64,000 bases of DNA from a virus. Made by a program: the position numbers and the translations under genes. Below the pieces are notes generated by a model, which saw only the letters and a program-made list of their open reading frames with translations, was not told the DNA's origin and did not search any database. Positions 1,143 through 22,364 of this stretch are shown here, in pieces; positions within the stretch are counted from its first letter, which is position 1, and each line of letters opens with the position of its first letter. The stretch lies in IMG/VR virus record IMGVR_UViG_3300008267_000018, positions 20,613 through 84,612 of that record; one strand, 5' to 3'.

Positions 1143-1160
1143 ACGTCATGACCAGGACGT
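1143..1160 (-). promoter_or_regulatory. recurrent 5'-UTR hairpin, copy 1
   Basis: ACGTC/GACGT 5-bp stem with an 8-nt loop, followed in the mRNA by TAAAACTG. It lies 31 nt before the ATG of the 37-aa membrane peptide and just after the stop of the preceding gene. Confidence 0.6.
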
Positions 1161-1164
1161 TAGA

Positions 1165-1491
1165 TCACTCTGGTTTAGTCAGCAGTTCTTTGATAGCTTG
1201 GATTTCATCCATCAAGTCCTGGCGACTATATAACGTGAGTGAATCATAGGAACGCTCCACGATTTTTTCAGGGGCTTCAGTCTTCTGGATAATGCGAGCC
1301 TCATCATTGACATCGTACGTAACAGTCTCGTACATTCTCCAGATCACATCATGGGGCCAACCATTGAGGTCTACGTTTTCCTCAAGTGATGCACGAATGA
1401 GTGCATGCATTGTCTTGAAAAGAAACGTAGCCTTATCCTCAAAGATCTCAAGGTAACGATCTTCGTCAAGGCCGTAAGTGTCAATCGACAT
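1165..1491 (-). CDS. hypothetical protein, 108 aa, acidic
   Basis: Start chosen at ATG 1491 (MSIDTYGLDEDRYLEIFEDK), which overlaps the upstream stop by 11 nt. A TTG nine bases further upstream is less likely. The protein is mostly helical and acidic, with no recognised domain. It is part of a chain of overlapping small genes 1165-2743 that are probably cotranslated. Confidence 0.6.
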   Translation of the reverse strand: MSIDTYGLDEDRYLEIFEDKATFLFKTMHALIRASLEENVDLNGWPHDVIWRMYETVTYDVNDEARIIQKTEAPEKIVERSYDSLTLYSRQDLMDEIQAIKELLTKPE

Positions 1492-1672
1492 AGCAGTCAA
1501 GTGCGTTGGTTAATGCTTCAATGATAAAGGATTTTTGTCCTTTTTCACCAAGGTTTGTCCAGTATTCAAGATCTGGATCAGCATCATCCCACTCAATGCG
1601 GATGATGCAACCACCATCTTCTTCGTCAATCACAGTCACTTGCAACTTGTTTACCCAATTCGTGTTCAACAT
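1481..1672 (-). CDS. small acidic hypothetical protein, 63 aa
   Basis: Predicted beta-rich first half (KLQVTVIDEEDGGCIIRIEW) then a helix; pI clearly acidic. It overlaps the upstream gene by 47 nt in another frame and the downstream gene by 11 nt, a compact early-gene arrangement. Not recognised. Confidence 0.55.
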   Translation of the reverse strand: MLNTNWVNKLQVTVIDEEDGGCIIRIEWDDADPDLEYWTNLGEKGQKSFIIEALTNALDCYVD

Positions 1673-1811
1673 GAGCTTTTAATACCTCTTCGACATAGTC
1701 TTCTTGGTGCATCCTAAGTTCTGCGCCAAGTTTTACAAGACCCCAGTGGGTATCTTGATCTAGTTCAAGATCGTAACGGATTGTTGTTTTGGTGTGTAAG
1801 TTGTGCTTCAT
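1626..1811 (-). CDS. small hypothetical protein, 61 aa
   Basis: The sequence LELDQDTHWGLVKLGAELR followed by a second helix with EDYVEEVLKAHVEHEL resembles a ribbon-helix-helix type layout (short strand, two helices), but the match is weak. The start ATG at 1811 overlaps the stop of the 311-aa gene by 4 nt (ATGA), showing translational coupling. Could be a small regulator; otherwise unknown. Confidence 0.5.
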   Translation of the reverse strand: MKHNLHTKTTIRYDLELDQDTHWGLVKLGAELRMHQEDYVEEVLKAHVEHELGKQVASDCD

Positions 1812-2743
1812 TTCTTTTTGATTGCGGATTGCAGTTGTGACAATGCAGTACCAGGAAATGGTACATAGCCTGCCTCCATCATATTGAAAAACAAATCCCA
1901 GGCATGCCCTTGGTTGAATACCTCCGTTGGTTTGTACGTACGCCAGTGAGTCAATGGAGCCTGAGCACCAGACTTGGTATGCAGAAGTACAAACTTACCA
2001 TCACTGATGTGATCCTGAGGAGGTGCATACCACCATGCCACACACTTATCAGGTGTACCACTGGGCAATGCATTACGCACCTCAGTCCGCTTGCACAGCA
2101 GCTCACGGTATTTATGGAACCAAGTCAGGTGGATGCACCAGGGCTTGAATCCTTCGATCTCTTGTCGGAACAAATCCAAGTTGTTGAGCTGACGTTGAAA
2201 GGACCCGCATGAACAGAAAGGTTCAGGGACTTTGGACTCAGCTTGGTCCTCCACCAAGTCAGCGTCCATATCAATGGGCCGATTTGGAGCCCGCAACCCG
2301 TCCGGCGCAACCAAATGCCCCAGGTCCGTTTGGTCATTCTGGAGAAGAGCGATGACTTTATTGGGGTCAGATAAATGAATGAACTTGTCTGCCCAGTGTT
2401 GTTGGAGCTTGGCATTGGAAGTCAGGTGTCCGAGTGCGTGTGAGTAGTTCCAGCCCTTAAACATAACGTAAGCATTGTTATGCCATACACTAGGGCCACG
2501 GTAATTAGGACCAAGGTAAGAAAAGAAGTCTTTGAGTCGGTGAGTATACTGCTGGAACGCTGTCTTGATCAACGTCCGTTCATAAGCCTGCTCACTACCA
2601 TCACAACGCACCACAACACAATTGTCATCTCGCAGATAAATGCCAGAGATTTCGGTGTCATCAAAGTCTGCATACGCACGACGAATGTTGGACCGTGAAT
2701 AGATGAGGGCTTGAGCTGAGTTGAGTTCGGTTTGGAGTTGCAT
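1808..2743 (-). CDS. SWIM-type zinc-finger-like hypothetical protein
   Basis: 311 aa. Around residues 180-215 it reads PFCSCGSFQRQLNN...FKPWCIHL. This is CxC followed ~23 residues later by CxH, the ligand pattern of SWIM zinc fingers, which mediate nucleic-acid or protein contacts. The rest is aromatic-rich and not recognised. The leader before ATG 2743 contains CTAACTCAACTCAG and no Shine-Dalgarno. It heads the overlapping gene chain 1165-2743. Confidence 0.55.
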   Translation of the reverse strand: MQLQTELNSAQALIYSRSNIRRAYADFDDTEISGIYLRDDNCVVVRCDGSEQAYERTLIKTAFQQYTHRLKDFFSYLGPNYRGPSVWHNNAYVMFKGWNYSHALGHLTSNAKLQQHWADKFIHLSDPNKVIALLQNDQTDLGHLVAPDGLRAPNRPIDMDADLVEDQAESKVPEPFCSCGSFQRQLNNLDLFRQEIEGFKPWCIHLTWFHKYRELLCKRTEVRNALPSGTPDKCVAWWYAPPQDHISDGKFVLLHTKSGAQAPLTHWRTYKPTEVFNQGHAWDLFFNMMEAGYVPFPGTALSQLQSAIKKK

Positions 2744-2757
2744 GAGTCTGAGTTGAG

Positions 2758-2961
2758 TTAGATGAAGAGATCAGCGTCCTGGTCCCTGTCGTGAAGTGTA
2801 TCACGATACTTGGTCCGCTTGTAGGCCAAGCGCGCCATCCGATACGTTCCGTAAAGAACGCCAGCCCAGCATACAGGACTACCAATGGCCAAGGCAACCA
2901 CTCCTGCTATGGCAGCAGTTGCGGCACCATCTTTGATTGCAGCTTTTTCTTCAGGTTTCAT
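2758..2961 (-). CDS. small membrane protein, 67 aa
   Basis: A helical hydrophobic stretch (residues 11-38, ATAAIAGVVALAIGS then CWAGVLYG) forms one or two short membrane spans. It is followed by a basic then acidic tail. It is the first minus-strand gene left of the divergent region with the plus-strand gene at 3041. Unknown role. Confidence 0.55.
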   Translation of the reverse strand: MKPEEKAAIKDGAATAAIAGVVALAIGSPVCWAGVLYGTYRMARLAYKRTKYRDTLHDRDQDADLFI

Positions 2962-3001
2962 TTGTGATTGTTAATACATTTTGAAGTTTTGATCTAGGGT
3001 T

Positions 3002-3007
3002 TACTAT
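3002..3007 (+). promoter_or_regulatory. candidate -10 box TACTAT
   Basis: TACTAT lies 33 nt before the only plus-strand gene of the early block (3041). No convincing -35 is seen. Confidence 0.35.
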
Positions 3008-3040
3008 AGATGTAACCTATGGATGCCAACTGAATAAGCC

Positions 3041-3292
3041 ATGGAAGAAATCAAATACGTACCATTAACTAAATTTCAAATTGAACCAACGCTTGATGAT
3101 AAGTTTTGGCTAGAAAAAATCAAACGATCAATTGAAGATTGCAATTCAGTAAGTACCTTAAAAGAAATGGCGACCTTGCTTGCGCAGATCGCCACTCAAC
3201 GTCAAGGTGTGATTAGGGGATTAGTACAAGACATGTTTATTTTTAACGGCATTGCAATCAATCAAGATGACATTGCCAACCCTCCGACTTAG
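3041..3292 (+). CDS. isolated plus-strand hypothetical protein, 83 aa
   Basis: This is the only plus-strand gene in the first 23 kb. The protein (start MEEIKYVPLTKFQIEPTLDD) is mostly helical, with a regular LKEMATLLAQIATQRQGVIR segment, and has no recognised domain. It has its own candidate -10 box at 3002. Its last 35 nt are tail-to-tail with the HNH gene on the other strand, so both C-termini are encoded by the same DNA. Expression opposite to the early operon suggests separate timing. Confidence 0.6.
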   Translation: MEEIKYVPLTKFQIEPTLDDKFWLEKIKRSIEDCNSVSTLKEMATLLAQIATQRQGVIRGLVQDMFIFNGIAINQDDIANPPT

Positions 3293-3707
3293 CTTCTGCA
3301 ATTAAACGAAAAACGGTTCTTTTGTTGTAACCAACATGTTTTGCAATCACATGGACAGCAGTACCTTCTTGTTTCATTTTTAAAATTGTTTTTCTTGTTT
3401 CAAAAGTACATTTTTTTGGATGGGTTCCATGGCGCTTTTTATTGTTCATATCATTTAAATTATCTAATTGTGTTCCAAGTTTTAAATGAAGTGGATTGCA
3501 ACACAATCGTACATCGCATACATGCATAACAACTTTCCCTTTAGGAATAGGACCATAAAAATGCGAGTAAGTCCACCTATGGGCTAGTCTACTCACAGGG
3601 TTTGTAGGCATTTGGCCATAGCCTGCACCCATAGTAGAGCCAAGAAAAGGCCAGCATGAAGCTGGCCCGCCCTCAGAATCAATGAGACTGAGAAAATAAT
3701 AACTCAC
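3258..3707 (-). CDS. HNH homing endonuclease with C-terminal HTH
   Basis: 149 aa. Residues ~40-80 (LAHRWTYSHFYGPIPKGKVV, MHVCDVRLCCNPLHL) match the HNH_3 fold: an H before the core, a second H in the VMHVCD segment and N in CCNPLHL. The last ~40 residues (MKQEGTAVHVIAKHVGYNKR) form a helix-turn-helix for DNA binding. GTG start at 3707 overlaps the stop of the DUF5895-like gene. Unlike three other HNH genes here, no duplicated 3' end of the neighbour is visible downstream. Instead it meets the plus-strand gene 3041-3292. Confidence 0.8.
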   Translation of the reverse strand: MSYYFLSLIDSEGGPASCWPFLGSTMGAGYGQMPTNPVSRLAHRWTYSHFYGPIPKGKVVMHVCDVRLCCNPLHLKLGTQLDNLNDMNNKKRHGTHPKKCTFETRKTILKMKQEGTAVHVIAKHVGYNKRTVFRLIAEAKSEGWQCHLD

Positions 3708-4720
3708 AAGCTATTGTCCTCCCCAGTTAAAAGGTCACGAGAAGGTAATGCCTTGACTTCTACTTCATTCAATGTACGAGACACTGGAAGAACCTGCACG
3801 CCTTCTTTCATTCCATATGCTCCATTAAGTTTTTGAGCATCTTGTTTAGCATGGATGTTAATGTAATCACTGAACAGTTCCTGGAACTTCCAAGTAGATT
3901 CACGATCTTCATCAGGAATCGACATGCGATTCAAAGATTCGACCGCCTCTTCTTGGTTGCTGTAACCAGGAATGTCAAAAGATTCAATTGCACAGATCTC
4001 AACGTTGTTGGCTCCGCGCATCTCATTGGCAAGTACTGGAGCAAATACGGTAGTTGCATAGAACTTTTCATTAAAGCTCAGCGGTACTTCAGCATCCAGT
4101 GCTTTGCTCAAGCACTTGGACATTTCCTTTTCGTACAGCTTGACCTTGTCGCTAACGTCAGTACCATTCAATCCCTTTAGTGTAAGCACCATCGGAATCT
4201 TGTGGGCACGCTTGTTGTCCTGCGTAAGGATATACACCAGGTACTTTGTACGTACACTGTACTTACGCTTGTACATCTCACCTTTGCTGTTGGCAAGATC
4301 AGATGCAATCTTGTCAGCCTCAAACAATTCCTTGGTACTGGGATCATCAAACGTACCAATCGTCTGCCTCATCCCCGTGGTTTCCTCAACCATGAGGGGA
4401 GAACGTAGAAGGATTTGAATACGAGGCTCAACAAAATTGAGTCCTTCTTCCACTGAAGTGTTGGGAGCCATGCCGAAAGTTTGCTTGTAGTTCCAGATAA
4501 CTGAACCTTTAGCAAACTGATCTTCAGTGGCACTCCATCCGCAAGTGTCCAGATCTGAGTTCCGCACGAACCAACCTCTAGTCTTGGACTTGTTGAGGGG
4601 CTGGATAGTAACGAGGTTCTGGTACCCCGAAACAAATTCTTTGGATTGAAAAAGTTTGAAAGAATCGAGGCCACGTGTAGCAAGCGCAGAAGTTTTCTTC
4701 GTAGTCATGGAAGCAGTCAT
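3704..4720 (-). CDS. DUF5895-like protein next to SSB/DNA polymerase
   Basis: 338 aa (an alternative ATG at 4708 gives 334). It contains TRGWFVRNSDLDTCGW near residues 47-62 and a long mixed alpha/beta body. The overall look resembles DUF5895 proteins of cyanobacteria and their phages. I name that family with limited confidence. It lies in the replication cluster with SSB and Pol A, so a DNA-metabolism role is plausible but not shown. A recurrent hairpin sits 35 nt upstream of the start. Confidence 0.5.
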   Translation of the reverse strand: MTASMTTKKTSALATRGLDSFKLFQSKEFVSGYQNLVTIQPLNKSKTRGWFVRNSDLDTCGWSATEDQFAKGSVIWNYKQTFGMAPNTSVEEGLNFVEPRIQILLRSPLMVEETTGMRQTIGTFDDPSTKELFEADKIASDLANSKGEMYKRKYSVRTKYLVYILTQDNKRAHKIPMVLTLKGLNGTDVSDKVKLYEKEMSKCLSKALDAEVPLSFNEKFYATTVFAPVLANEMRGANNVEICAIESFDIPGYSNQEEAVESLNRMSIPDEDRESTWKFQELFSDYINIHAKQDAQKLNGAYGMKEGVQVLPVSRTLNEVEVKALPSRDLLTGEDNSL

Positions 4721-4754
4721 GATGTGTTCAGGGTTTGGGCGTGGACGCTTTTAA

Positions 4755-4769
4755 CGCCATCCCGAGGCG
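4755..4769 (-). promoter_or_regulatory. recurrent 5'-UTR hairpin, copy 2
   Basis: CGCC/GGCG stem with a 7-nt loop, followed by TTAAAAGC in the mRNA. The stem sequence differs completely from the other copies while pairing is kept. It lies 35 nt before ATG 4720. Confidence 0.6.
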
Positions 4770-4774
4770 GTGAT

Positions 4775-5014
4775 CTATGCTAGATCCTTGCAGGCATCTG
4801 CGTCATAAAGAGCGCGTGCTTTTGACAAAGCTTCACGTTCATCAATGGTTTCCTGGAACGCAGAGTAGATACTGTCTTCGTGGTAACCACAACCCTTCAT
4901 AAACATTACGAAGTGCTCAAGGATCTCATCAGTAGTAACACCATCGCTTTGGAATACGATGGTGTAATCTTCTTCTTCCAAAGTAAACTTCATCCGTTGA
5001 TCAGCTTTTGACAT
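4775..5014 (-). CDS. hypothetical acidic protein, 79 aa
   Basis: Start taken as ATG 5014 (MSKADQRMKFTLEEEDYTIV), overlapping the upstream stop by 14 nt; the longer frame would extend far into the neighbour. The pattern is one strand pair then helices. No family recognised. Confidence 0.55.
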   Translation of the reverse strand: MSKADQRMKFTLEEEDYTIVFQSDGVTTDEILEHFVMFMKGCGYHEDSIYSAFQETIDEREALSKARALYDADACKDLA

Positions 5015-5225
5015 TGGTTTTCTCATTGTTAGATTCAAGCTGAAGCTTGCGTGCTTCAGTAAAAATTTCTGCAATTAAATAAGAAGACCTGGCGAGTGTT
5101 GCAACTGTTTGCGCAAACTCTTCTCCGCTTTGTTCTTTGTCTTGGAAAAAAGTGTTTATGTTTTCCATGAAAAACTCATAAGCCATTGCATCAAGAAGGC
5201 TTAGGTTGGTAATTTCAAGTGACAT
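5001..5225 (-). CDS. hypothetical protein, 74 aa
   Basis: All-helical small protein (LSLLDAMAYEFFMENINTFF), located between SSB and the 79-aa gene and overlapping the latter by 14 nt. Probably cotranscribed with SSB. Function unknown. Confidence 0.55.
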   Translation of the reverse strand: MSLEITNLSLLDAMAYEFFMENINTFFQDKEQSGEEFAQTVATLARSSYLIAEIFTEARKLQLESNNEKTNVKS

Positions 5226-5230
5226 GGTAA

Positions 5231-6046
5231 TCAGAAAGGAACTTCTTCGAGGTTGGGAGCAGAACCGTATTGACCAGGGAGTTCAGGTAGGCCACCTCCC
5301 GATGCTTGGTTCCAAGGATCAGTTGATTCTTCTAATGTGCGACCACCCCAAAGAGTAGACACATTCTCCGGCGTGCTTACCGTAGTCTGTGATTTGATTT
5401 CCCTTGGCTGATCATTCACATTTCCTTTGGGTGCAAGGGTCATGTTTACCAATTGAATCTTGGTTTGAACACGCTTTTCATTTGTGGTTTGATCGGTCCA
5501 CGCATCAGTAACAAGCCGACCTTTAATGGTAAGACCCACGCCTTTACGCGTAAAGTTCACCAACAGTTCTGCGTTGTTCAACTTATCTTCATGCGAGTTG
5601 ATCGCATAAAAGTTAAAGAGATCAGCTTGGTTACGACCAGTGCTAACCGACAACGTTTGGTTGCAGATCATCAAGCCAGTTGATGTGGTCTTGAATGCAC
5701 GTGCATCTTCACGGTCAATGTCTTTAACACAGCGACCAGCAAGGATCACATCATTGATGATTGGAAACTCATCATTGACCTGGTGGATAATTCCACCATG
5801 AAGTGAATGTGTTTTGGATTCAAGATCATAACGAATCTTGGCGCCATAAATAAACACCAAAGATTTTTCTTTCAGCCTGGAGAAACGCTCAGCAGTTTTG
5901 CCATAGACATTGAGTTGAATTGGAGTTGGTGCTTTGTTTCCTACGGGAGGAAGCAGTACCATGCAACGCATGGCAGTAGAGGATGCGCTGATGTAAACCT
6001 CGCGTGGAGTTTCATTCAGCTGAGCACAAACGCAGACGTGATTCAT
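5231..6046 (-). CDS. ssb: single-stranded DNA-binding protein with two OB-like halves
   Basis: 271 aa. Residues 1-95 and ~100-200 each look like an OB fold of the SSB family (IQLNVYGKTAERF in the first, VILAGRCVKDIDR opening the second). After a Gly/Ser/Pro-rich linker it ends in LEEVPF, matching the acidic hydrophobic SSB tip (consensus DDDIPF) that recruits replication proteins. Bacterial SSB has one OB per chain (~170 aa), so this is a tandem version. Its position next to DNA polymerase and the family-typical tail make the role clear. A recurrent hairpin lies 34 nt before ATG 6046. Confidence 0.82.
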   Translation of the reverse strand: MNHVCVCAQLNETPREVYISASSTAMRCMVLLPPVGNKAPTPIQLNVYGKTAERFSRLKEKSLVFIYGAKIRYDLESKTHSLHGGIIHQVNDEFPIINDVILAGRCVKDIDREDARAFKTTSTGLMICNQTLSVSTGRNQADLFNFYAINSHEDKLNNAELLVNFTRKGVGLTIKGRLVTDAWTDQTTNEKRVQTKIQLVNMTLAPKGNVNDQPREIKSQTTVSTPENVSTLWGGRTLEESTDPWNQASGGGLPELPGQYGSAPNLEEVPF

Positions 6047-6079
6047 TAACTTGAGAAGTTAGGTGTTAAGGCAGTTTAA

Positions 6080-6095
6080 CGTCATACCTGGGACG
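6080..6095 (-). promoter_or_regulatory. recurrent 5'-UTR hairpin, copy 3
   Basis: CGTC/GACG stem, 8-nt loop, then TTAAACTGCC in the mRNA; 34 nt before the ssb start. Confidence 0.6.
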
Positions 6096-6109
6096 AATCA
6101 AACAAATAC

Positions 6110-13843: not shown

Positions 13844-13919
13844 TGGTACCCGAGGTGAGATTCGAACTCACGCTTGAGGACTTTTAAGGTCCTTGCCTCT
13901 TCCGCTGGGCTACTCGGGC
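13844..13919 (-). tRNA. tRNA with anticodon UAA (reads UUA, Leu), short variable loop
   Basis: A complete cloverleaf of 76 nt with encoded CCA. Acceptor GCCCGAG pairs with CTCGGGT (one G-U). The D arm is GCCC...AGGC with a 13-22 mismatch. The anticodon stem AGGAC/GTCCT carries loop CTTAAAA, so the anticodon is UAA. The variable loop has 5 nt; T stem GTGAG/CTCAC with loop TTCGAAT. Leu tRNAs are normally class II with a long variable arm; this one is class I. Its first ten bases are shared with the 3' end of the CDS at 13910-14176. Confidence 0.85.
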
Positions 13920-15973: not shown

Positions 15974-16011
15974 GGTGAGTTCGTAGTAAGTTCGTAGTAG
16001 TGGACAGTTTA

Positions 16012-16029
16012 ACGTCATGTCCAGGACGT
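16012..16029 (-). promoter_or_regulatory. recurrent 5'-UTR hairpin, copy 5
   Basis: ACGTC/GACGT stem, 8-nt loop, then TTAAACTGTCC; 39 nt before the PcfJ-like start. Confidence 0.6.
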
Positions 16030-16033
16030 AGGG

Positions 16034-16282: not shown

Positions 16283-16285
16283 GAG

Positions 16286-16486
16286 TTACACCTGTGTGAG
16301 TTGTTTGGCCTGGGCAAACTGACCTTCAGGCCCATACTTCTGGACAAGGTCAGGGAATGCATCAAGCAAACGCTGCCGATTCTTTGGATCAGCAAAGCGT
16401 AGTGCTTGTGCAATTGAGGATACAAATGATCCGCCATAGCTGTCCATGCGGGCAATCATGGCGTGTAGCTCAGTGCTGTTCATGAG
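16286..16486 (-). CDS. hypothetical protein, 66 aa
   Basis: Start at ATG 16486 (MNSTELHAMIARMDSYGGSF). It is preceded by CCAACTCAACC and, 30 nt upstream, the hairpin whose AUG (16522) is also in frame. Helical; the segment LRFADPKNRQRLLDAFPDLV is the most distinctive part. Family unknown. Confidence 0.55.
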   Translation of the reverse strand, partial: LMNSTELHAMIARMDSYGGSFVSSIAQALRFADPKNRQRLLDAFPDLVQKYGPEGQFAQAKQLTQV

Positions 16487-16515
16487 TTTAGGTTGAGTTG
16501 GAATGGATGAGTTTA

Positions 16516-16532
16516 AGGACATCCCAGGTCCT
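16516..16532 (-). promoter_or_regulatory. recurrent 5'-UTR hairpin, copy 6
   Basis: AGGAC/GTCCT stem, 7-nt loop, then TTAAACTC; 30 nt before ATG 16486. Confidence 0.6.
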
Positions 16533-16536
16533 TGGA

Positions 16537-16734
16537 TCAGAACAACTTGATGTTGCGTTTACTCAAGCCTGTGCCAGGCAATGAGATAGATCCACGTACA
16601 CCAGATTCTCTGGCGTTAAGTGTTACCTGGAATGGTCCAAGTTGAATCGACTTAGTAAACGATTTGATTCCATGTTCAGTGACATTGAATCCAGCAATTG
16701 TCTTGTCAAAGTTAATGGGTGACTTGTCAGTCAT
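16537..16734 (-). CDS. DUF4236-like protein
   Basis: 65 aa from ATG 16734. The C-terminal half (SIQLGPFQVTLNARESGVRG, then SISLPGTGLS) matches the beta-strand pattern of DUF4236: a LG-x-x-V-N segment, then SGVxGSxSxPGTG. Function of that family is unknown. Joined to the ITPPPELV copy 3 gene by the same 8-nt overlap as the 11-12 kb array. Confidence 0.6.
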   Translation of the reverse strand: MTDKSPINFDKTIAGFNVTEHGIKSFTKSIQLGPFQVTLNARESGVRGSISLPGTGLSKRNIKLF

Positions 16735-17071
16735 CGAGTTGCTCCAGTGCTTTACGAATGATGTCGTAAGTGACATCATCAATCTTGTCTCTGTTGTATA
16801 CATCGCCAAGTTCAATTAACGCTTGCTCCTTTAAGCTTGGCGGCCTGGGGCGGCGGGCGGCGCGGAGTGATGGGATGAGAGCGCAGTGAGTTACTAGGTT
16901 TTGGCAGCGCAGCCACTCACAACACGCCTCTAGCTCCTGATCGGCGCCCCAGCGGGCGGCTTGGGTGGCGATGAAATCTACAAGTCCATCATGTTTGACC
17001 TTGGCATCAATCCAAGAATCGTGCCACTGCTCCACCAGTTCCGGCGGTGGGGTAATTGGATGGTCAGTCAT
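16727..17071 (-). CDS. 'ITPPPELV' family protein, copy 3
   Basis: 114 aa: MTDHPITPPPELVEQW, AARWGADQELEACCEWL, RAARRPRPPSLKEQALIEL and KALEQLDD. Paralogue of copies 1 and 2. The central part is GC-rich relative to its neighbours. 8-nt overlaps at both ends show that it was inserted as the same kind of module about 4.3 kb from the main array. Confidence 0.7.
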   Translation of the reverse strand: MTDHPITPPPELVEQWHDSWIDAKVKHDGLVDFIATQAARWGADQELEACCEWLRCQNLVTHCALIPSLRAARRPRPPSLKEQALIELGDVYNRDKIDDVTYDIIRKALEQLDD

Positions 17072-17363
17072 CGTAGGAATCCTCGTGACAAAGAATGAAT
17101 TTTAATTCGAAATACTCCGAATCGCTATTGTCTTTGGAATGGTACTTGGCTTCGAATCCACCAGATCCAACACATGTTTCCTTGATGGATTCATTTAATA
17201 AATGACGTGCCCTTGCTTTAAGTCTTTGCAATGTTGGCAATGAGTATCCATTGCCTGCCGTTGTTTGCCATTGCCAGTCAAGTGCTGTCATGGCAATCAA
17301 TACTTTTTCAAAGTTGAATTTGTCAATGATCTCATCGATCATTTCCTTCTGATCAGGAGTCAT
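17064..17363 (-). CDS. hypothetical protein, 99 aa
   Basis: Helical first half (QKEMIDEIIDKFNFEKVLIA, LQRLKARARHLLNESI), then beta segments (EYFELKFILCHEDS). It overlaps the upstream gene by 4 nt and the downstream gene by 8 nt. Not recognised. Confidence 0.55.
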   Translation of the reverse strand: MTPDQKEMIDEIIDKFNFEKVLIAMTALDWQWQTTAGNGYSLPTLQRLKARARHLLNESIKETCVGSGGFEAKYHSKDNSDSEYFELKFILCHEDSYDD

Positions 17364-17563
17364 TTGAGGTTGTCAGGTAGTAGTGCTTGGGTGTCTTCAT
17401 CATCCATGTTTGTCATGATGAACTTTTGTCCATCGGGGGCAACAAAGCCCCCGATAAAACCAATGCCATGTTTATCTGCTGATTCTTTCATCTTGGCTAC
17501 AAGCTGCATAGCTTGGAGTCGTTGAAGATCAATAGAGTCTGGGATGCGCAGGCTGTCAGACAT
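17360..17563 (-). CDS. hypothetical protein, 67 aa
   Basis: Begins MSDSLRIPDSIDLQRLQAMQ, with GIGFIGGFVAPDGQKFIM in the middle. The leader shows CACACTCAACTCACCTCACG and a long hairpin (17591-17630). Not recognised. Confidence 0.55.
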   Translation of the reverse strand: MSDSLRIPDSIDLQRLQAMQLVAKMKESADKHGIGFIGGFVAPDGQKFIMTNMDDEDTQALLPDNLK

Positions 17564-17590
17564 TTGATTAGTACGTGAGGTGAGTTGAGT

Positions 17591-17630
17591 GTGGTCACGG
17601 CAAGTCTACCAGGGTAGTCAAGCCATGACC
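17591..17630 (-). promoter_or_regulatory. long 5'-UTR inverted repeat
   Basis: GGTCAcGGC/GCCaTGACC arms enclose a smaller inverted repeat (CTACC/GGTAG). It lies between the stop of 17669-18136 and the start at 17563, so it may be a 3' stem for one gene or a leader structure for the next. Confidence 0.45.
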
Positions 17631-17668
17631 AATGGTCTTAATGTTTCCTTAACCTTGCGGTAGGGCTG

Positions 17669-18136
17669 TTAGCTATGAAGTTCTTGGTGCTGACGCCATG
17701 CAGCTGTGTGCATTTCATCAGCAGTCAGTGGTGACTCACTGCCATAGCCAAGCTCTTCATCTGATGGTTCATAGTCAAGTTCATTGTCAAGCATGGGGAT
17801 AATCTCATCATCCAGCATGGCAAGCATGGAGGGTGTGAGATGTTGATCCATTTCGTGACGTTTGCTCTCACGTTGAGAGATAGCTTTCAGTTCTTCGAGA
17901 ATGTTGGCAAGCTTGTGGTACTCGTTAAGGTTGGTCTTGTGAGTAGTCATGGGTTGATTATTGGAAGATTGAGTAGTGATCTGGAACTTAATCAGTTCAG
18001 TTAGTCCAACAAGCCTGGTGATTACCAGGTCTTTGTTGTCATGAACTGTTGCATCATCTTTGAGTACTTCAGTTAATGCAAACAATGCATCATGGATGAA
18101 AGTGATGTCTACTTCTGTGAAGGAGTACTGTTTAGT
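17669..18136 (-). CDS. hypothetical protein, probably two small genes fused in frame
   Basis: 155 aa from ATG 18136 (MTKQYSFTEVDITFIHDALF). At codon 63 a second start, ATG ACT, occurs at 17950 and is preceded by the same CAACCC as the first ATG. The second part (MTTHKTNLNEYHKLANILEE) looks like an independent gene. Loss of a stop codon between two adjacent genes would explain this. Both parts are helical; neither is recognised. Confidence 0.5.
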   Translation of the reverse strand, partial: TKQYSFTEVDITFIHDALFALTEVLKDDATVHDNKDLVITRLVGLTELIKFQITTQSSNNQPMTTHKTNLNEYHKLANILEELKAISQRESKRHEMDQHLTPSMLAMLDDEIIPMLDNELDYEPSDEELGYGSESPLTADEMHTAAWRQHQELHS

Positions 18137-18228
18137 CATGGGTTGGTAAGTGAATGAATGGTGTGTAGTACAGAGGCATCTCTTATAGATTAAGGTGCAC
18201 CTCTGGTACTTCTGTCGGGGGGTCTGGG

Positions 18229-18259
18229 GGGTAGGCCAGTAGTTATCTGGCAATACCCT
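18229..18259. repeat. 31-bp perfect direct repeat, copy A
   Basis: Identical to 18500-18530 (starts GGGTAGGCCAGTAGTTATCT). The two copies flank the 68-aa gene at 18268-18474. Confidence 0.85.
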
Positions 18260-18267
18260 TGATGAGT

Positions 18268-18474
18268 TTAAAAACAGTTGTGAGGCGTACCTAGTTCTTT
18301 GATCAATCGCTCAAAGGAACAATTGACTCTTGTGCCGTTAACGACTGCATAGATGTTATCGCTGCCATAAGTTGTACGCAGTTCAGTTATCTTATCTTCT
18401 GGTATAGCTAGAAGATGAGGTCTGCCATCTGAAGTAACTTGAGTGGTTTTGAAAACAAAAATTCTTTGTGGCAT
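18268..18474 (-). CDS. hypothetical protein flanked by direct repeats, 68 aa
   Basis: Beginning MPQRIFVFKTTQVTSDGRPH, it is predicted to be a small alpha/beta protein with no recognised family. The gene lies between two perfect 31-bp direct repeats, so homologous recombination could delete it cleanly; it may itself be a recent cassette. Confidence 0.55.
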   Translation of the reverse strand: MPQRIFVFKTTQVTSDGRPHLLAIPEDKITELRTTYGSDNIYAVVNGTRVNCSFERLIKELGTPHNCF

Positions 18475-18499
18475 TGTGTTAATTACGTTGAGCTTAAAT

Positions 18500-18530
18500 G
18501 GGTAGGCCAGTAGTTATCTGGCAATACCCT
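18500..18530. repeat. 31-bp perfect direct repeat, copy B
   Basis: Partner of 18229-18259. A degenerate third relative with the same GGGGTCTGGGGG prefix and CTTATCT end lies near 20396-20430. Confidence 0.85.
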
Positions 18531-18540
18531 GGTACTTACT

Positions 18541-18588
18541 GTTCGCTATTCGCAAATAGCGAATGTCAGCATAACGTTAGTGTTATGT
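18541..18588. repeat. two adjacent inverted repeats
   Basis: TTCGCTATT/AATAGCGAA (9 bp) and CATAAC/GTTATG (6 bp) lie just downstream of the HNH/AP2 gene and upstream of the 68-aa gene. Likely an mRNA 3' stem or terminator-like structure without T run. Confidence 0.5.
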
Positions 18589-18596
18589 GCCGTAGG

Positions 18597-18629
18597 TTAG
18601 ATCAAGCCGAGAATCCTAAGCCAGGAGTT
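18597..18629 (-). pseudogene. orphan duplicate 3' end of the 19161-19520 gene
   Basis: Reads NSWLRILGLI-stop in frame, against DSWLSILGLI-stop at the true end of the 119-aa gene: 8 of 10 residues identical, but only 22 of 33 bases, with mostly synonymous changes. It lies directly beyond the HNH/AP2 gene and overlaps its last codons. Confidence 0.75.
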
Positions 18630-19158
18630 TACAACTGATTTCAGGCAATACATTTAATACTGAAAAATCTTTGTAAACATCTTTAACAAAGCAATTGTAT
18701 TCATAGGCTAAACGAGCAGGGCATATGTGATGAGCAAGATGTTTAGACTTACCGTTTAGAGTAACGGTAGACCTAAATAAACCTCTTGTCTTGTGCCATG
18801 AAACCCCCTTGTAACCCGTAGTGTTACTAGATCTAAGTTTCATGTTTGCTGCGTTTTGAGATCTACTTGATAAACGTAGATTTTCAATACAGTTATTAGA
18901 ACTATCTTGATCTATATGATCAACTTCATATTGACCAGGATCTGTACCTGTGGCCAGATAATAAACAATCCTGGCGCACTTATAGTTCTTTCCATTGATT
19001 TGAATTATAGATCGCTTGGATTTAAAATCATAGGCACCTGCCTGTTCACCAGGTTTGCATCGATTATTAAAGCTGTATTTAACAGCAAGACCAGTAGGAA
19101 AACTGGGGCAAAGTTCATAACGCTTTGCCACCAAATCGTAGTCAGGCATGTTGTGCAT
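18616..19158 (-). CDS. HNH homing endonuclease with AP2 domain
   Basis: 180 aa from ATG 19158 (ATG 19149 also possible; a start at 19188 would overlap the neighbour). HNH_3 core around residues 55-105: CARIVYYLATGTDPGQYEVD, then HIDQDSSNNCIENLRLSS, with the usual H-N-N pattern. AP2 domain ~115-160: TGYKGVSWHKTRGLFRSTVT. Homing endonucleases of this type cut an uninvaded allele and are copied in by repair. It sits at the 3' end of 19161-19520 and is followed by a duplicate of that gene's end (18597-18629). Confidence 0.85.
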   Translation of the reverse strand: MHNMPDYDLVAKRYELCPSFPTGLAVKYSFNNRCKPGEQAGAYDFKSKRSIIQINGKNYKCARIVYYLATGTDPGQYEVDHIDQDSSNNCIENLRLSSRSQNAANMKLRSSNTTGYKGVSWHKTRGLFRSTVTLNGKSKHLAHHICPARLAYEYNCFVKDVYKDFSVLNVLPEISCKLLA

Positions 19159-19160
19159 AA

Positions 19161-19520
19161 TTAAATCAATCCAAGAATTGATAACCAAGAATCTACGTGG
19201 TCTGGTTCGACTTCGTCACTGCAGGGAGTGAGGCAGGTGCTGTCGAACGTGTACTCCTCGATCTCTTCGTTGGTTGGGATGTCGTACCATCCTTCGAGAT
19301 CTTCCTTGTCCTGGGCTGAGTAGTTACCACCGGCTGGGATCCAGTAGCACCTGAGGATTCCACGCTTGGTTCTGTAGACATTACCAGTGCAGGCGATGGC
19401 GCCTTTGGGTGCGTCCTGAAAGTCTGTCTCTGCTTGGAACTGCTGGTTACCTTCGTCTTCGTCGAAGGCTTCGTAGCCGAGTGCGTCTGCGATGAGCAGT
19501 TGTTCAGGTTGAAGAGACAT
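19161..19520 (-). CDS. hypothetical acidic protein, target of HNH insertion
   Basis: 119 aa, MSLQPEQLLIADALGYEAFD at the start and HVDSWLSILGLI at the end. It contains GNVYRTKRGILRCYWIPAGG in the middle and is strongly acidic. Its last 11 codons are duplicated beyond the HNH gene, so its current 3' end probably came in with the endonuclease. The upstream 328 nt also carry the out-of-frame tail of the membrane protein 19193-19672. Confidence 0.6.
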   Translation of the reverse strand: MSLQPEQLLIADALGYEAFDEDEGNQQFQAETDFQDAPKGAIACTGNVYRTKRGILRCYWIPAGGNYSAQDKEDLEGWYDIPTNEEIEEYTFDSTCLTPCSDEVEPDHVDSWLSILGLI

Positions 19521-19672
19521 GAGATGAGATCTCCGATGAGTGTGATTGAGATTGAGATGAGTGTGATCAGGACAATGGCGATGTCGTCAACAATGTCGAC
19601 CTGCTGTTGATTAGCAGTTGATGTCGGCACAGTTGACGAGTTGTCCTTAGTACGTTGAGTTGATTTGGTCAT
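19193..19672 (-). CDS. membrane-anchored Ser/Thr-rich protein, overlapping frame
   Basis: 159 aa. Residues ~28-55 (DIAIVLITLISISITLIGDL) are a membrane span. The following ~105 residues are Ser/Thr/Pro/Lys-rich and are encoded out of frame over most of the 19161-19520 gene. The start (19672) is 2 nt after the stop of the 47-aa gene, so the N-terminus is credible. The low-complexity tail may simply be read-through of an overlapped frame. Whether the tail is selected is open. Confidence 0.4.
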   Translation of the reverse strand: MTKSTQRTKDNSSTVPTSTANQQQVDIVDDIAIVLITLISISITLIGDLISCLFNLNNCSSQTHSATKPSTKTKVTSSSKQRQTFRTHPKAPSPALVMSTEPSVESSGATGSQPVVTTQPRTRKISKDGTTSQPTKRSRSTRSTAPASLPAVTKSNQTT

Positions 19673-19674
19673 GG

Positions 19675-19818
19675 TTAATCACCGTGGTAAGTGGATGGGT
19701 AGTCAGTGGTATCCCAATCAGATTGATTGGATTCACGCATGGCTTGCTCCTGCTCATAGGCAATGTCTGCCATAGCATCAAGCAAGTCTGCGTTGTAGTT
19801 CTGATCAAGTTGAGTCAT
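19675..19818 (-). CDS. small acidic protein, 47 aa
   Basis: ATG 19818 to TAA 19675; starts MTQLDQNYNADLLDAMADIA and ends DYPSTYHGD. The leader has CATCTCAACTCAGACC before ATG and a recurrent hairpin 35 nt upstream, the same context as other early genes. Unknown role. Confidence 0.6.
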   Translation of the reverse strand: MTQLDQNYNADLLDAMADIAYEQEQAMRESNQSDWDTTDYPSTYHGD

Positions 19819-19852
19819 GGTCTGAGTTGAGATGGAACGGTGAGCAGTTTAA

Positions 19853-19868
19853 GGACATGCTCAGGTCC
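19853..19868 (-). promoter_or_regulatory. recurrent 5'-UTR hairpin, copy 7
   Basis: GGAC/GTCC stem, 8-nt loop CTGAGCAT, then TTAAACTGCTC; 35 nt before ATG 19818. Here the AUG in the hairpin is out of frame with the gene and opens a short reading frame across its start. Confidence 0.6.
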
Positions 19869-19886
19869 ATACGTAGTACTGATGTA

Positions 19887-20261
19887 CTACCTCATGAGTC
19901 TGTTCTTGAAGTTGGGGATATATACATTGTCTTGGCACGGTTCCTTATAGGACCTGTACGTGACAATTGCATAGATGGCCGCTGGTGTCATGTCGTATGC
20001 CCTGGCAATAAACCCAATTGATTCATTGTATTTAGCACGGGCACGAATGTCATTGACCTGGGCATCACTAAGGAAGCCACGGTAGCGTCCACGTTTGATT
20101 GGGTCTTCCTTGAGGGGAGGACGTTGCCTCACTCTACGGATGACCTTAGTCATTGATATGGGACTGCAGTTGACAATGCTAGCGATCAGATCGTAGCGAT
20201 AACCTTTGCAACGCAGATCCCAAATCTGGTCTTCTTTCAGGATAGAAATGCGTGATTTCAT
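19887..20261 (-). CDS. double helix-turn-helix DNA-binding protein
   Basis: 124 aa. Two similar HTH units: residues ~8-45 (LKEDQIWDLRCKGYRYDLIA) and ~64-102 (LSDAQVNDIRARAKYNESIG, then DMTPAAIYAIVTYRSYK). These resemble the HTH that follows HNH domains in phage homing nucleases, but no nuclease part exists. Likely a transcription regulator or a decayed homing gene. The leader contains CCAACAACTCAACTCAAATC. Confidence 0.6.
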   Translation of the reverse strand: MKSRISILKEDQIWDLRCKGYRYDLIASIVNCSPISMTKVIRRVRQRPPLKEDPIKRGRYRGFLSDAQVNDIRARAKYNESIGFIARAYDMTPAAIYAIVTYRSYKEPCQDNVYIPNFKNRLMR

Positions 20262-20295
20262 TGGATTTGAGTTGAGTTGTTGGTGAGTAGTTTAA

Positions 20296-20311
20296 GGACA
20301 TGCTCAGGTCC
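20296..20311 (-). promoter_or_regulatory. recurrent 5'-UTR hairpin, copy 8
   Basis: GGAC/GTCC stem and loop identical to copy 7; 35 nt before the double-HTH start at 20261. Confidence 0.6.
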
Positions 20312-20422
20312 ATCTAATACTTGGAATCTTAATAACCGTTGTTTATCAAAGATCTTAATAACTAAACAGCCATTACTTTGGTGCTGGCTGTTCGGGTGGG
20401 GGTCTGGGGGTAAACCTAGTGC

Positions 20423-20764
20423 TTATCTTATGTATAGGTATGAACCTGCATAATCACAGTTGTGTAGGCAGGTTTCAAATGATTGATCATCCAGTAGTTG
20501 GTACCGTGCATGTTCCGCTGGTGCTTTCCATGATGCAGGCTTATAGATAGTCCCTGTCTGTCTTGCGACAAATGCATGGACTGATCTGCCTTCATACCTG
20601 GTACCAGGACTAGAGACATGGATGATCTTGTAGTACTTAACCCCTCGCTTAACTTCGAAAGCTACGGGGCTACTGTGCTGTTTGTAGAACTTATCTTGGA
20701 GAGTCTCGCAGAGTTGTTGGATGCGATCCTCGATAAGCTTGGTGTTAGCGCTTAGTGTTGTCAT
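20423..20764 (-). CDS. conserved phage hypothetical protein
   Basis: 113 aa from ATG 20764. It contains FEVKRGVKYYKIIHVSSPGT, GRSVHAFVARQTGTIYKPAS and a YLY end. This VKxGxKYxKI...SVHAFV...G-x-x-YKPASWKAPA pattern recurs in unrelated tailed phages as an uncharacterised small protein. The start is supported by a CAACCCAACTCCTACTCAAC leader. It overlaps the membrane protein gene by 20 nt. Confidence 0.65.
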   Translation of the reverse strand: MTTLSANTKLIEDRIQQLCETLQDKFYKQHSSPVAFEVKRGVKYYKIIHVSSPGTRYEGRSVHAFVARQTGTIYKPASWKAPAEHARYQLLDDQSFETCLHNCDYAGSYLYIR

Positions 20765-20942
20765 GTTGTTGAGTAGGAGTTGGGTTGGTGATATCAATGC
20801 CGACTACAGCAGTTGCTGTGAAGCCAGCAATGATAAGTGATAGGGCTGCCACACAGATCTTACTAAGGCGAGTCTCATGAGACGCATAGTAAGAATCAAG
20901 GTGGACAAATTGCCCTGGTGCTAGACGAACGATGTGCTTCAT
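20745..20942 (-). CDS. small single-span membrane protein, 65 aa
   Basis: Hydrophilic N-terminus, then a span at residues ~28-50 (KICVAALSLIIAGFTATAVV) and a polar tail. The leader is purine-poor (CAGTCAACTGAAAACCA). Unknown role. Confidence 0.55.
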   Translation of the reverse strand: MKHIVRLAPGQFVHLDSYYASHETRLSKICVAALSLIIAGFTATAVVGIDITNPTPTQQHDNTKR

Positions 20943-20948
20943 TGGTTT

Positions 20949-21209
20949 TCAGTTGACTGCAAGGATGTACTTAACGCATACGTAGCTTGGCACTACGTAG
21001 TAGCTAGGAATCTCGTTGAGATAGTACCATTCACCCTTGTAGTCAAGAGATATGCAAGAGTTTTCGGTAACAAGCTGTAGTGCTTTGGCGCCTGTGGTGC
21101 ACCAAACCATGTATACATTCTTGTCAAACAGCAGATAGTAATCATGCTCTTTGATGTCAAACTCTTTGAGTGCAGATTGAATTTGAATGTGGTCAAGTGT
21201 GATTGGCAT
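20949..21209 (-). CDS. hypothetical protein, 86 aa
   Basis: Alternating strand/helix pattern: HDYYLLFDKNVYMVWCTTGA, then ISLDYKGEWYYLNEIP. Preceded by CACACTCAACCCAG and by a 31-nt repeat (21249-21279) shared with the leader at 21833. Not recognised. Confidence 0.55.
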   Translation of the reverse strand: MPITLDHIQIQSALKEFDIKEHDYYLLFDKNVYMVWCTTGAKALQLVTENSCISLDYKGEWYYLNEIPSYYVVPSYVCVKYILAVN

Positions 21210-21248
21210 AGAGATTCAACTGGGTTGAGTGTGTGCAGACGCTGAGGT

Positions 21249-21279
21249 CTGCAGTAAAGGCCCGAAGGCCCTTAGTGCA
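21249..21279. repeat. intergenic repeat pair, copy A
   Basis: CTGCAGTAAAGGCCCG...CCCTTAGTGCA, two mismatches to 21833-21863. It lies between the stop of 21284-21481 and the start at 21209, with an adjacent GCAGAC/GTCTGC inverted repeat. Confidence 0.7.
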
Positions 21280-21283
21280 AACG

Positions 21284-21481
21284 TCAAAGGTAACGCTTAT
21301 CCAGGCAATAGTATGCATCGCCTATAAAGCTACGCATGTATACCAGTTGATGCCCTGCTTTCGCTGGGCAATGTTTGACGTAATAATTGTTGAGTAACTT
21401 CTGTGCTCCTACGGATAAGAGCATACCTGCTCCTACGCCCATAACCATGGCCAGCACAGGTGTTGCGAGTGAGTCTTTCAT
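21284..21481 (-). CDS. small membrane protein, 65 aa
   Basis: An N-terminal span (PVLAMVMGVGAGMLLSVGAQ) resembling a signal anchor, then a polar domain with two cysteines (HCPAKAGHQL, YYCLDKRYL) that could form a disulphide outside the cytoplasm. The leader has CAGCTCAACTGAC. Confidence 0.55.
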   Translation of the reverse strand: MKDSLATPVLAMVMGVGAGMLLSVGAQKLLNNYYVKHCPAKAGHQLVYMRSFIGDAYYCLDKRYL

Positions 21482-21520
21482 GTCAGTTGAGCTGAGGTTG
21501 ATTGAGTGTGTTGAGAAGGA

Positions 21521-21793
21521 TCACATGCGTTGAAGCTTGCGCTCTAGTTCCATGTCAATGGAGTAATGATAGTAGTCTTCCATCTCCATGAGCATCTCCT
21601 TCATACTTGTTGGTACGCCACCGCCAAGTGTACGTACGTCACGGTCTAGCCACTCTTGCCATTCGGCATCGGTGTCTGGGTCAAATGTATTCCACAGCTT
21701 CTCAAAGTGAAGCTGGGTTGATTCGCCGCCATACCATGTGACGCGGTACTGTTGTTCGGCGGATGGTTTGTAGACCAGCTCAGGTGTTGTCAT
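21521..21793 (-). CDS. hypothetical protein, 90 aa
   Basis: QYRVTWYGGESTQLHFEKLW and a helical C-terminus (SMKEMLMEMEDYYHYSIDME). The leader is CGCTACTTCAACTCAACA directly before ATG. Not recognised. Confidence 0.55.
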   Translation of the reverse strand: MTTPELVYKPSAEQQYRVTWYGGESTQLHFEKLWNTFDPDTDAEWQEWLDRDVRTLGGGVPTSMKEMLMEMEDYYHYSIDMELERKLQRM

Positions 21794-21832
21794 TGTTGAG
21801 TTGAAGTAGCGTTGATGACAGGATGTTGAGTC

Positions 21833-21863
21833 CTGCAGTAAAGGCCCGTAGACCCTTAGTGCA
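21833..21863. repeat. intergenic repeat pair, copy B
   Basis: Partner of 21249-21279, in the equivalent place between the stop of 21868-22041 and the start at 21793. Confidence 0.7.
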
Positions 21864-21867
21864 GAAG

Positions 21868-22041
21868 TCAGAGTTCAGGTTTAGGAGTAATGACGAATGC
21901 CACATCGTTAGGCATCAGTAGTGCTGCTGCCCTGATGCGGTATTCATTCAGCTTGGTGCTGACATACTCCTTAGATTTGTCACTCTCCAGCATTGCTGCT
22001 GTCGAGATGAGTGCATTGGCTAGTCCTTTGCGGATACCCAT
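21868..22041 (-). CDS. small hypothetical protein, 57 aa
   Basis: Start at ATG 22041 (MGIRKGLANALISTAAMLES), favoured by the leader CTACACAACACAAC; an upstream ATG at 22074 lies in the 5' region. All helical. Not recognised. Confidence 0.5.
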   Translation of the reverse strand: MGIRKGLANALISTAAMLESDKSKEYVSTKLNEYRIRAAALLMPNDVAFVITPKPEL

Positions 22042-22116
22042 GTTGTGTTGTGTAGATGCCACTGAGTGTGGCAATTCCTGACCAGGGGATTTGATCCCCC
22101 GGCATCACGCTTGTGA

Positions 22117-22308
22117 TCAGGCAAGCCAATTCTGGTAGATCCAGATACGGCACTCATCGTAATCAAGGTTGACGTTGGGGTCTTTGCACATGGCAGAAGC
22201 CTGAGCCTCTACCCATGTGCAAACGTGGCAATCAACCATGACAGGCAGCTCGATGCCACATACTGTTGCAACGTAATCGCCCTGTTGATTAAGTGAGATA
22301 CAGTTCAT
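22117..22308 (-). CDS. hypothetical protein, 63 aa
   Basis: It has three cysteines (VCGIELPVMVDCHVCTWVEA) that could bind metal or form disulphides, and ends CRIWIYQNWLA. The leader CATCAACTCACCTCAACATC and a recurrent hairpin 41 nt upstream place it with the early genes. Confidence 0.55.
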   Translation of the reverse strand: MNCISLNQQGDYVATVCGIELPVMVDCHVCTWVEAQASAMCKDPNVNLDYDECRIWIYQNWLA

Positions 22309-22348
22309 GATGTTGAGGTGAGTTGATGTGGGTTTGATGCTACGTTTA

Positions 22349-22364
22349 ACGTCCAGCTTGACGT
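22349..22364 (-). promoter_or_regulatory. recurrent 5'-UTR hairpin, copy 9
   Basis: ACGTC/GACGT stem with a 6-nt loop, then TTAAACGT; 41 nt before ATG 22308. The only copy without AUG in the loop. Confidence 0.55.

What the first reader, a model, noticed from the sequence alone, without database searches (positions are those of the whole stretch)
1143..22364. Nine copies of a covarying hairpin at fixed distance from early gene starts
Hairpins at 1143, 4755, 6080, 9017, 16012, 16516, 19853, 20296 and 22349 lie 31, 35, 34, 46, 39, 30, 35, 35 and 41 nt before a start codon. Stems differ (ACGTC/GACGT, AGGAC/GTCCT, CGCC/GGCG) while pairing is kept. In the mRNA each is followed by (T/C)TAAAC or a close variant. 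Eight contain AUG at the loop/3'-stem edge (AUGUCCUUAAAC, AUGACGUUAAAC), in frame with the gene in some cases and out of frame in others. This looks like a phage-specific 5'-UTR element that marks transcript starts, stabilises 5' ends or gates translation.
Basis: seen in the sequence. Interest (0 to 1): 0.8.

Follow-up and report, generated by a model that had tools for sequence, protein, structure and literature searches.

The report
Coremin-like RNA pseudoknot between phage genes
The nine hairpins are halves of a 28-nucleotide RNA pseudoknot that sits between phage genes a few bases after a stop codon, recurs in unrelated phages and bacteria, and resembles a plant-virus RNA knot that stops RNA-eating enzymes, so it probably shields phage messages from decay.

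Summary
The hairpins are real, all on the minus strand, but they are only half of the structure. The hairpin loop pairs with the six bases after UUAAAC, giving a compact H-type pseudoknot of about 28 nt: S1 4-5 bp, L1 = C, S2 5-6 bp, L3 = NWAAAC. Both stems covary in 95 related IMG/VR loci and in Synechococcus phage S-EIV1 (356 sense-strand hits, 0 antisense). It is not phage-group specific: the same pseudoknot occurs in phages of Staphylococcus, Lactobacillus, Enterococcus, Geobacillus, Arthrobacter, Mycobacterium, Paracoccus, Nostoc and others, and in some bacterial genomes. Rfam did not recognise it in the window or in 36 sampled loci. It does not mark transcript starts. It is intercistronic: S1 begins 5 nt after the upstream stop codon in 124 of 264 cases (12 expected), with the next AUG about 20 nt downstream, or a tRNA 2-6 nt downstream. 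The hairpin AUG is not a start codon. S1, L1 and L3 match the plant-virus coremin exoribonuclease-resistant RNA (CGUC-C..GACG-UUAAACU). Best explanation: a coremin-like barrier to 5'->3' decay, probably by host RNase J, at cistron borders. Structure and placement are shown; nuclease resistance is inferred. Coremin's loop consensus and second hairpin are not met.

The parts
1132..1160 (-). Pseudoknot 1: ACGTC C TGGTCA T GACGT AAAAC TGACC(G); 5 nt after a TGA stop (ORF 1500-1165); next gene MFESLF.. starts 1112
   Evidence: orthologue in S-EIV1 at 25920
4744..4769 (-). Divergent copy 2: CGCC TCGGGAT GGCG TTAAAA; second stem weak (about GGA/UCC); about 5 nt after a TAG stop (ORF 5074-4775); next gene DUF5895 starts 4720
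   Evidence: S-EIV1 orthologue at 29170 has a full pseudoknot
6068..6095 (-). Pseudoknot 3: CGTC C(C) AGGTA T GACG TTAAAC TGCCT; 14 nt after the DNA polymerase ORF (7975-6110); next gene SSB starts 6046
   Evidence: SSB by Pfam PF00436
9006..9031 (-). Pseudoknot 4 (7-nt loop): GGAC C TGAG AT GTCC CTAAA CTCA; next gene GP88-like starts 8971
   Evidence: Pfam PF17338
16001..16029 (-). Pseudoknot 5, best example: S1 ACGTC(16029-16025)/GACGT(16016-16012); L1 C16024; S2 TGGACA(16023-16018)/TGTCCA(16006-16001); L3 TAAAC; 5 nt after a TAA stop (ORF 16282-16034); next gene PcfJ-like starts 15973
16506..16532 (-). Pseudoknot 6 (7-nt loop): AGGAC CTGGGAT GTCCT TAAAC TCATCC; 5 nt after a TGA stop (ORF 16815-16537); next gene 65 aa starts 16483
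19841..19868 (-). Pseudoknot 7: GGAC C TGAGCA T GTCC TTAAAC TGCTCA; 18 nt after a TAG stop (ORF 20261-19887); next gene 47 aa starts 19818
20284..20311 (-). Pseudoknot 8: GGAC C TGAGCA T GTCC TTAAAC TACTCA (one C-A mismatch in S2); next gene 124 aa starts 20261
22338..22364 (-). Divergent copy 9 (6-nt loop): ACGTC AAGCTG GACGT TAAACG TAGC; S2 weak (GCTG/TAGC); next gene 63 aa starts 22308

Best explanation
Each hairpin is stem 1 of a compact H-type pseudoknot of about 28 nt in a polycistronic phage mRNA. It lies between two genes: typically 5 nt after the stop codon of one and about 20 nt before the AUG of the next, so that, by known ribosome footprints, neither a terminating nor an initiating ribosome should need to unfold it. 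I propose that it works like the plant-virus coremin RNA: a mechanical block to a 5'->3' exoribonuclease. After an endonuclease cuts the long transcript, RNase J would eat the upstream part and stop at the base of S1. This would leave a stable downstream mRNA, or tRNA precursor, whose 5' end is the pseudoknot. Shown here: the pseudoknot, its covariation, its placement and its wide distribution. Inferred: nuclease resistance, RNase J as the target, and benefit to the downstream cistron.
For: Pseudoknot: hairpins chosen without any demand on S2 have 5/5 S2 pairs in 151 of 191 (permutation mean 59.6, max 77), 0 of 10 on the reverse strand. Hairpins chosen by S2 without any demand on S1 have S1 4/4 in 77 of 87. 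On 100 distinct sequences 94% of cells pair against 81.1% shuffled, and covariation is 0.449 against 0.200, 0/500 shuffles reaching it. Placement: 124 of 264 have a stop codon ending exactly 5 nt before S1 (12 expected), with a median of 85 open codons upstream, and a sharp lower edge. Unrelated phages and bacteria show 33 at 5, 18 at 6 and 11 at 7 nt. Distance to AUG has mode 20, rarely below 18. In other phages it precedes scaffold/capsid genes or lies 2-6 nt from tRNAs. Coremin is (C)GUC-loop-GAC(G)-UUAAACUAC, stalls Xrn1 one nt before the hairpin, and occurs in intergenic regions, 3' UTRs and around stop codons (PMC10520033). A flaviviral exoribonuclease-resistant RNA halts bacterial RNase J1 (PMC5760640). 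One 30-nt query has no match in 5,426 E. coli genomes. RNase J family TIGR00649 scores over the cut-off in four of the five bacterial genomes tested; the fifth is Acinetobacter, where the pseudoknot match was weak.
Against: No degradation or RNA-end data were available. The coremin loop consensus (YG..) is not met, and cyanophage copies have no second hairpin, both needed for Xrn1 resistance in the published constructs. The taxonomic link to RNase J rests on small numbers: 7 of 345 Lactobacillales genomes, 1 of 321 Gammaproteobacteria (the weak centre genome itself) and 1 of 296 Actinobacteriota. One Vibrio phage group has a well-paired match, on the strand opposite its neighbouring genes. In the bacterial tiny-ORF family the pseudoknot overlaps the end of an ORF and is often followed by a terminator, which does not fit 'protect the next gene'.
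Confidence: 0.55

Rival explanations
1. Translation insulator: a mechanically stiff knot just after the stop codon keeps post-termination ribosomes from wandering on, and keeps initiation on the next gene independent.
For: Exact spacing to stop codon and start codon; coremin also blocks scanning ribosomes in vitro; cyanophage genes with the element have no Shine-Dalgarno match and a nearly G-free leader.
Against: The same pseudoknot lies 2-6 nt from tRNA genes, where no ribosome works. In Gram-positive phages the next start codon is about 60 nt away with its own Shine-Dalgarno.
Confidence: 0.17
2. Protein-bound operator: a phage or host protein (for instance SSB, as with T4 gp32) binds the knot and represses translation of many early genes.
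For: T4 gene 32 has a pseudoknot of about 28 nt followed by an unstructured UUAAA-containing stretch bound by its SSB (PMC535899); here 50 related phages have the element before their SSB gene.
Against: It precedes many unrelated genes in S-EIV1-like phages and scaffold genes or tRNAs in unrelated phages, so no single phage protein can be the common partner. Stop-codon spacing is not expected for an operator.
Confidence: 0.12
3. Barrier for 3'->5' exonucleases, or an endonuclease processing site, that defines the 3' end of the upstream cistron.
For: The fixed distance is to the upstream stop codon; one copy lies about 2 nt after a tRNA 3' end.
Against: The recurring partner in Gram-positive phages is the downstream scaffold gene, with varying upstream genes; the coremin resemblance points to 5'->3' enzymes.
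Confidence: 0.1
4. Recoding signal: stop codon followed by a 5-nt spacer and an H-type knot, promoting readthrough or frameshifting.
For: The geometry matches viral recoding sites (established knowledge); L1 C and A-rich L3 are typical.
Against: All three stop codons are used (TAA 50, TGA 37, TAG 18), the frame after the stop is open for a median of 20 codons, as expected by chance, and the element also lies next to tRNAs.
Confidence: 0.03

Closest known systems
Coremin / xrRNA_C of benyviruses, cucumoviruses and other RNA viruses
   Same: First stem CGUC/GACG, loop beginning with C, spacer UUAAACU, small size, location in intergenic regions, 3' UTRs and around stop codons (PMC10520033).
   Different: Here the loop is 8 nt and forms a covarying second stem of 5-6 bp with the bases after the spacer; no YG at the loop start; no obligatory second hairpin; hosts are bacteria. 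The coremin papers read here mention no phage or bacterium and describe no such stem.
T4 gene 32 mRNA pseudoknot (gp32 operator)
   Same: About 28-nt H-type pseudoknot in phage mRNA, followed by an unstructured leader; one copy here lies before an SSB gene (PMC535899).
   Different: Many copies per genome before unrelated genes and tRNAs; tied to the upstream stop codon; widespread in unrelated phages.
Flaviviral xrRNA
   Same: Proposed function: a mechanical block of 5'->3' exonucleases, shown to include RNase J1 (PMC5760640).
   Different: Three-way-junction ring fold, larger and unrelated in sequence.
Luteovirus-type recoding pseudoknots (e.g. BWYV)
   Same: Compact H-type with C in L1, one-base junction, A-rich L3, 5-6 nt after a codon of interest (own knowledge).
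   Different: No conserved slippery site seen, no selection for an open frame downstream.

Membership tests
Coremin xrRNA (xrRNA_C) | First hairpin stem CGUC/GACG (variants allowed) | tested here: met
   CGUC/GACG in most copies, with compensated variants GGAC/GUCC, UGUC/GACA, AGUC/GACU, CGAC/GUCG; S1 CGTC was partly imposed by the search pattern
Coremin xrRNA (xrRNA_C) | Spacer GUUAAACUAC after the hairpin | tested here: met
   NWAAACU nearly invariant; the last AC varies because it belongs to stem 2; AAAC was imposed by the pattern
Coremin xrRNA (xrRNA_C) | Loop consensus YGAD or YGNNAD | tested here: not met
   Loop is C-Y-R-R-N-Y-A-N; second base is U or C
Coremin xrRNA (xrRNA_C) | Second hairpin directly after the spacer | tested here: not met
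   Cyanophage leaders after the knot are nearly free of G, so no stable hairpin is expected there; some Gram-positive copies do have a hairpin CGTGG..CCACG further on
Coremin xrRNA (xrRNA_C) | Stalls a 5'->3' exoribonuclease | not testable with these tools
   Needs purified RNase J or Xrn1 and synthetic RNA
T4 gene 32 operator | H-type pseudoknot upstream of the SSB start | tested here: met
   Window 6068-6095 before SSB; 50 related loci
T4 gene 32 operator | Specific to the SSB message (autoregulation) | tested here: not met
   Precedes more than 15 other gene families, scaffold genes and tRNAs
Rfam families (any) | Match at gathering score | tested here: not met
   No family at any copy in the window or in 36 loci from other phages and bacteria

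The most novel reading that the evidence does not exclude
A single small RNA fold that stops 5'->3' RNA decay is shared, by descent or convergence, between plant and fungal RNA viruses (against Xrn1) and DNA phages and some bacteria (against RNase J), and phages use it as a punctuation mark between cistrons.
Probability: 0.5. Interest if true: 0.95.

Novelty: new variant of a known kind. Interest (0 to 1): 0.85.

Why it matters
Exoribonuclease-resistant RNAs are known from eukaryotic RNA viruses; the papers read here report none from DNA phages. If these 28 nt block RNase J, phages have a portable way to set the stability of each cistron in a long transcript, and a short mRNA stabiliser for bacteria becomes available. 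The covarying second stem also suggests a testable fold for coremin, which had no solved structure as of the 2023 paper: its G-A-D loop bases may pair with the U-A-C of its spacer in the same register.

Tried and rejected
Simple hairpin (rejected: S2 covaries). Promoter or transcript-start mark (rejected for copies with a stop codon 5 nt upstream; no conserved box beyond the stop codon). Upstream start codon or leader peptide (rejected: AUG not conserved, frame random). Stop-codon readthrough (rejected). Known Rfam family (none). Phage-specific element (rejected). SSB-only operator (rejected). BLAST hits in Erwinia phages are 17-nt matches only, and those in Mycobacterium abscessus prophages lie inside a minor tail protein gene; I did not count either. 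Bacteroidales copies have only four contiguous S2 pairs in a shifted register, so I do not count them as clearly the same element.
Full report
WHERE IT IS. The window is part of an 84.6 kb IMG/VR virus record related to the freshwater Synechococcus phage S-EIV1 (portal-region protein 76% identical). All nine hairpins are on the minus strand, in the block of leftward genes that carries DNA polymerase, SSB, GP88, ThyX, PcfJ-like and DUF5895 genes.

THE HAIRPIN IS HALF A PSEUDOKNOT. Reading on past the hairpin, the loop is complementary to the bases that follow UUAAAC: GGAC C TGAGCA T GTCC TTAAAC TGCTCA at 19868, and ACGTC C TGGACA T GACGT TAAAC TGTCCA at 16029. The second stem changes from copy to copy and keeps pairing (TGAGCA/TGCTCA, TGGACA/TGTCCA, GGTCA/TGACC, AGGTA/TGCCT). 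S-EIV1 has the same element at orthologous places with other stems (CGTC C CAAGCA T GACG TTAAAC TGCTT before its SSB gene). A pair model built from relatives scores seven window copies and seven S-EIV1 copies above 25; shuffled sequence gives 0.05 hits per strand above 14. The copies at 4755 and 22349 are divergent and their second stem is weak.

COVARIATION. Two searches gave 95 related loci. Hairpins selected with no demand on the second stem: 191 on the sense strand and 10 on the other; 151 of 191 have all five inner S2 pairs (permutation mean 59.6, maximum 77), 0 of 10 on the other strand. Selected by S2 with no demand on S1: 87 sense, 1 antisense; S1 is fully paired in 77 of 87. Pair counting on 100 distinct sequences: 94% of cells paired against 81.1% in shuffles, covariation 0.449 against 0.200, none of 500 shuffles as high; versions slid by 1-3 columns pair at most 48%; seven of ten pairs change on both sides. 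The search for both stems finds 356 sense and 0 antisense hits. Invariant or nearly so: C in L1, A-U as the last S2 pair, AAAC in L3.

PLACEMENT. A stop codon ends exactly 5 nt before the S1 core in 124 of 264 S-EIV1-like copies, where 12 are expected; these stops end real genes (median 85 open codons, 81% with 40 or more, against 10% for random stops). Stops nearer than 5 nt do not end long frames. In the window this holds at 1159, 16028 and 16531, and at 4770 within a base. The next AUG lies most often 19-22 nt after the second stem, rarely nearer than 18. From established ribosome geometry (inference), 5 nt after a stop codon in the A site is the entrance of the mRNA channel, and about 20 nt before AUG is the 5' edge of an initiating ribosome. 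So the knot occupies the smallest gap in which it can stay folded while both neighbours are translated. Genes with the knot in S-EIV1 have no Shine-Dalgarno match and 3% G in the last 20 nt before the AUG, against 15-22% for other genes.

NOT ONE PHAGE GROUP. The pair model, which includes S2, accepts all 119 viral and 94 of 116 genomic loci (the genomic figure includes weaker Bacteroidales-type matches). In the genomic set 42 of 118 have all five S2 pairs (permutation mean 12.8, max 20; 0 with the hexamer 100 nt further on). Among 166 copies in loci without S-EIV1-like genes detected (159 with enough upstream sequence), spacing to the stop codon again peaks at 5-7 nt. BLAST with 30-nt queries finds it, mostly between annotated genes, in phages of Staphylococcus, Lactobacillus, Geobacillus (D6E), Arthrobacter, Mycobacterium, Nostoc, Paracoccus, Moorella, Bacillus, Rhizobium and Lentibacter. 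In Firmicutes phages the next gene is again and again the scaffold protein. In Molivia, NMeng1, S-CRM01, L186, L193, L237 and L302 it lies within 2-6 nt of a tRNA. Rfam has no matching family in the window or in 36 sampled loci.

WHAT IT MOST LIKELY DOES. An always-folded knot between cistrons and next to tRNAs, in many hosts, points to RNA stability or processing rather than to a regulator of one gene. The closest described RNA is coremin of BNYVV and other RNA viruses: (C)GUC-CGAA-GAC(G)-UUAAACUAC, which halts the 5'->3' exonuclease Xrn1 one nucleotide before the hairpin, allows larger loops including an octaloop, occurs in intergenic regions, 3' UTRs and around stop codons, and also stalls scanning ribosomes; the paper mentions no phage or bacterium (PMC10520033). 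S1, the C that opens the loop, the spacer and the U that follows it coincide. In the same register coremin's G-A-D loop and U-A-C could form a very short S2; this is my inference. Flaviviral resistant RNAs block purified bacterial RNase J1 (PMC5760640), so a coremin-like fold blocking RNase J is plausible. One query found nothing in 5,426 E. coli genomes, and the element was rarer in Gammaproteobacteria (1 of 321, the weakly matching centre genome) than in Lactobacillales (7 of 345, centre included). RNase J is found in four of the five bacterial genomes tested; the fifth is that same Acinetobacter. These numbers are small, and Actinobacteriota had only 1 of 296. I put this explanation at 0.55 and do not call the element a coremin, because the loop consensus and second hairpin are not met.

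LIMITS. No expression data; the cross-bacterial survey is biased towards S1 = CGTC by its pattern; published coremin results come from eukaryotic enzymes; the literature search covered only open-licence papers, so an earlier description of this phage element elsewhere cannot be excluded.

Noticed in passing
L224, L233, L238, L239, L247, L258, L283, L312, L319, L332 and similar (bacterial MAGs of many phyla): A Shine-Dalgarno-led ORF of 16-27 codons (MKRFMVPRVAHCSEGC...) runs into the same pseudoknot at a near-constant distance (start 55 nt before S1 in most), its stop lying from 4 nt before to 20 nt after the S1 start, often followed by a terminator. Unknown tiny gene or source of a stable small RNA.
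   Followed up: partly
L336:about 3700-4100 on the - strand (Candidatus Phytoplasma vitis): At least eight tandem pseudoknot-like copies, several with their own stems.
   Followed up: no
L329:4947-5002: Two pseudoknots directly in tandem, reminiscent of duplicated viral exonuclease-resistant RNAs.
   Followed up: no
L265, L288, L250, L326 (Erysipelotrichaceae and Bacilli MAGs): Knot 16-18 nt before a gene of about 75 aa (MKYYTLTAV...); in L265 the flanks ATTACCT/AGGTAAT could sequester the Shine-Dalgarno: possible switch.
   Followed up: no
L352-L355, L357, L358, L337-L339, L230, L122: Several Gram-positive copies have, after the knot, a further hairpin like CGTGG..CCACG; in the phage scaffold leaders a U-run often follows the knot too.
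   Followed up: no
Bacteroidales loci L222, L245, L267, L294, L297, L305, L310: Related sequence CGTCCCATCCATGACGTAAAACCGGAT with a four-pair second stem in a shifted register, in some loci close behind a TTTG promoter-like box.
   Followed up: no
window 13844-13919 (-): Phage tRNA-Leu (UAA).
   Followed up: no
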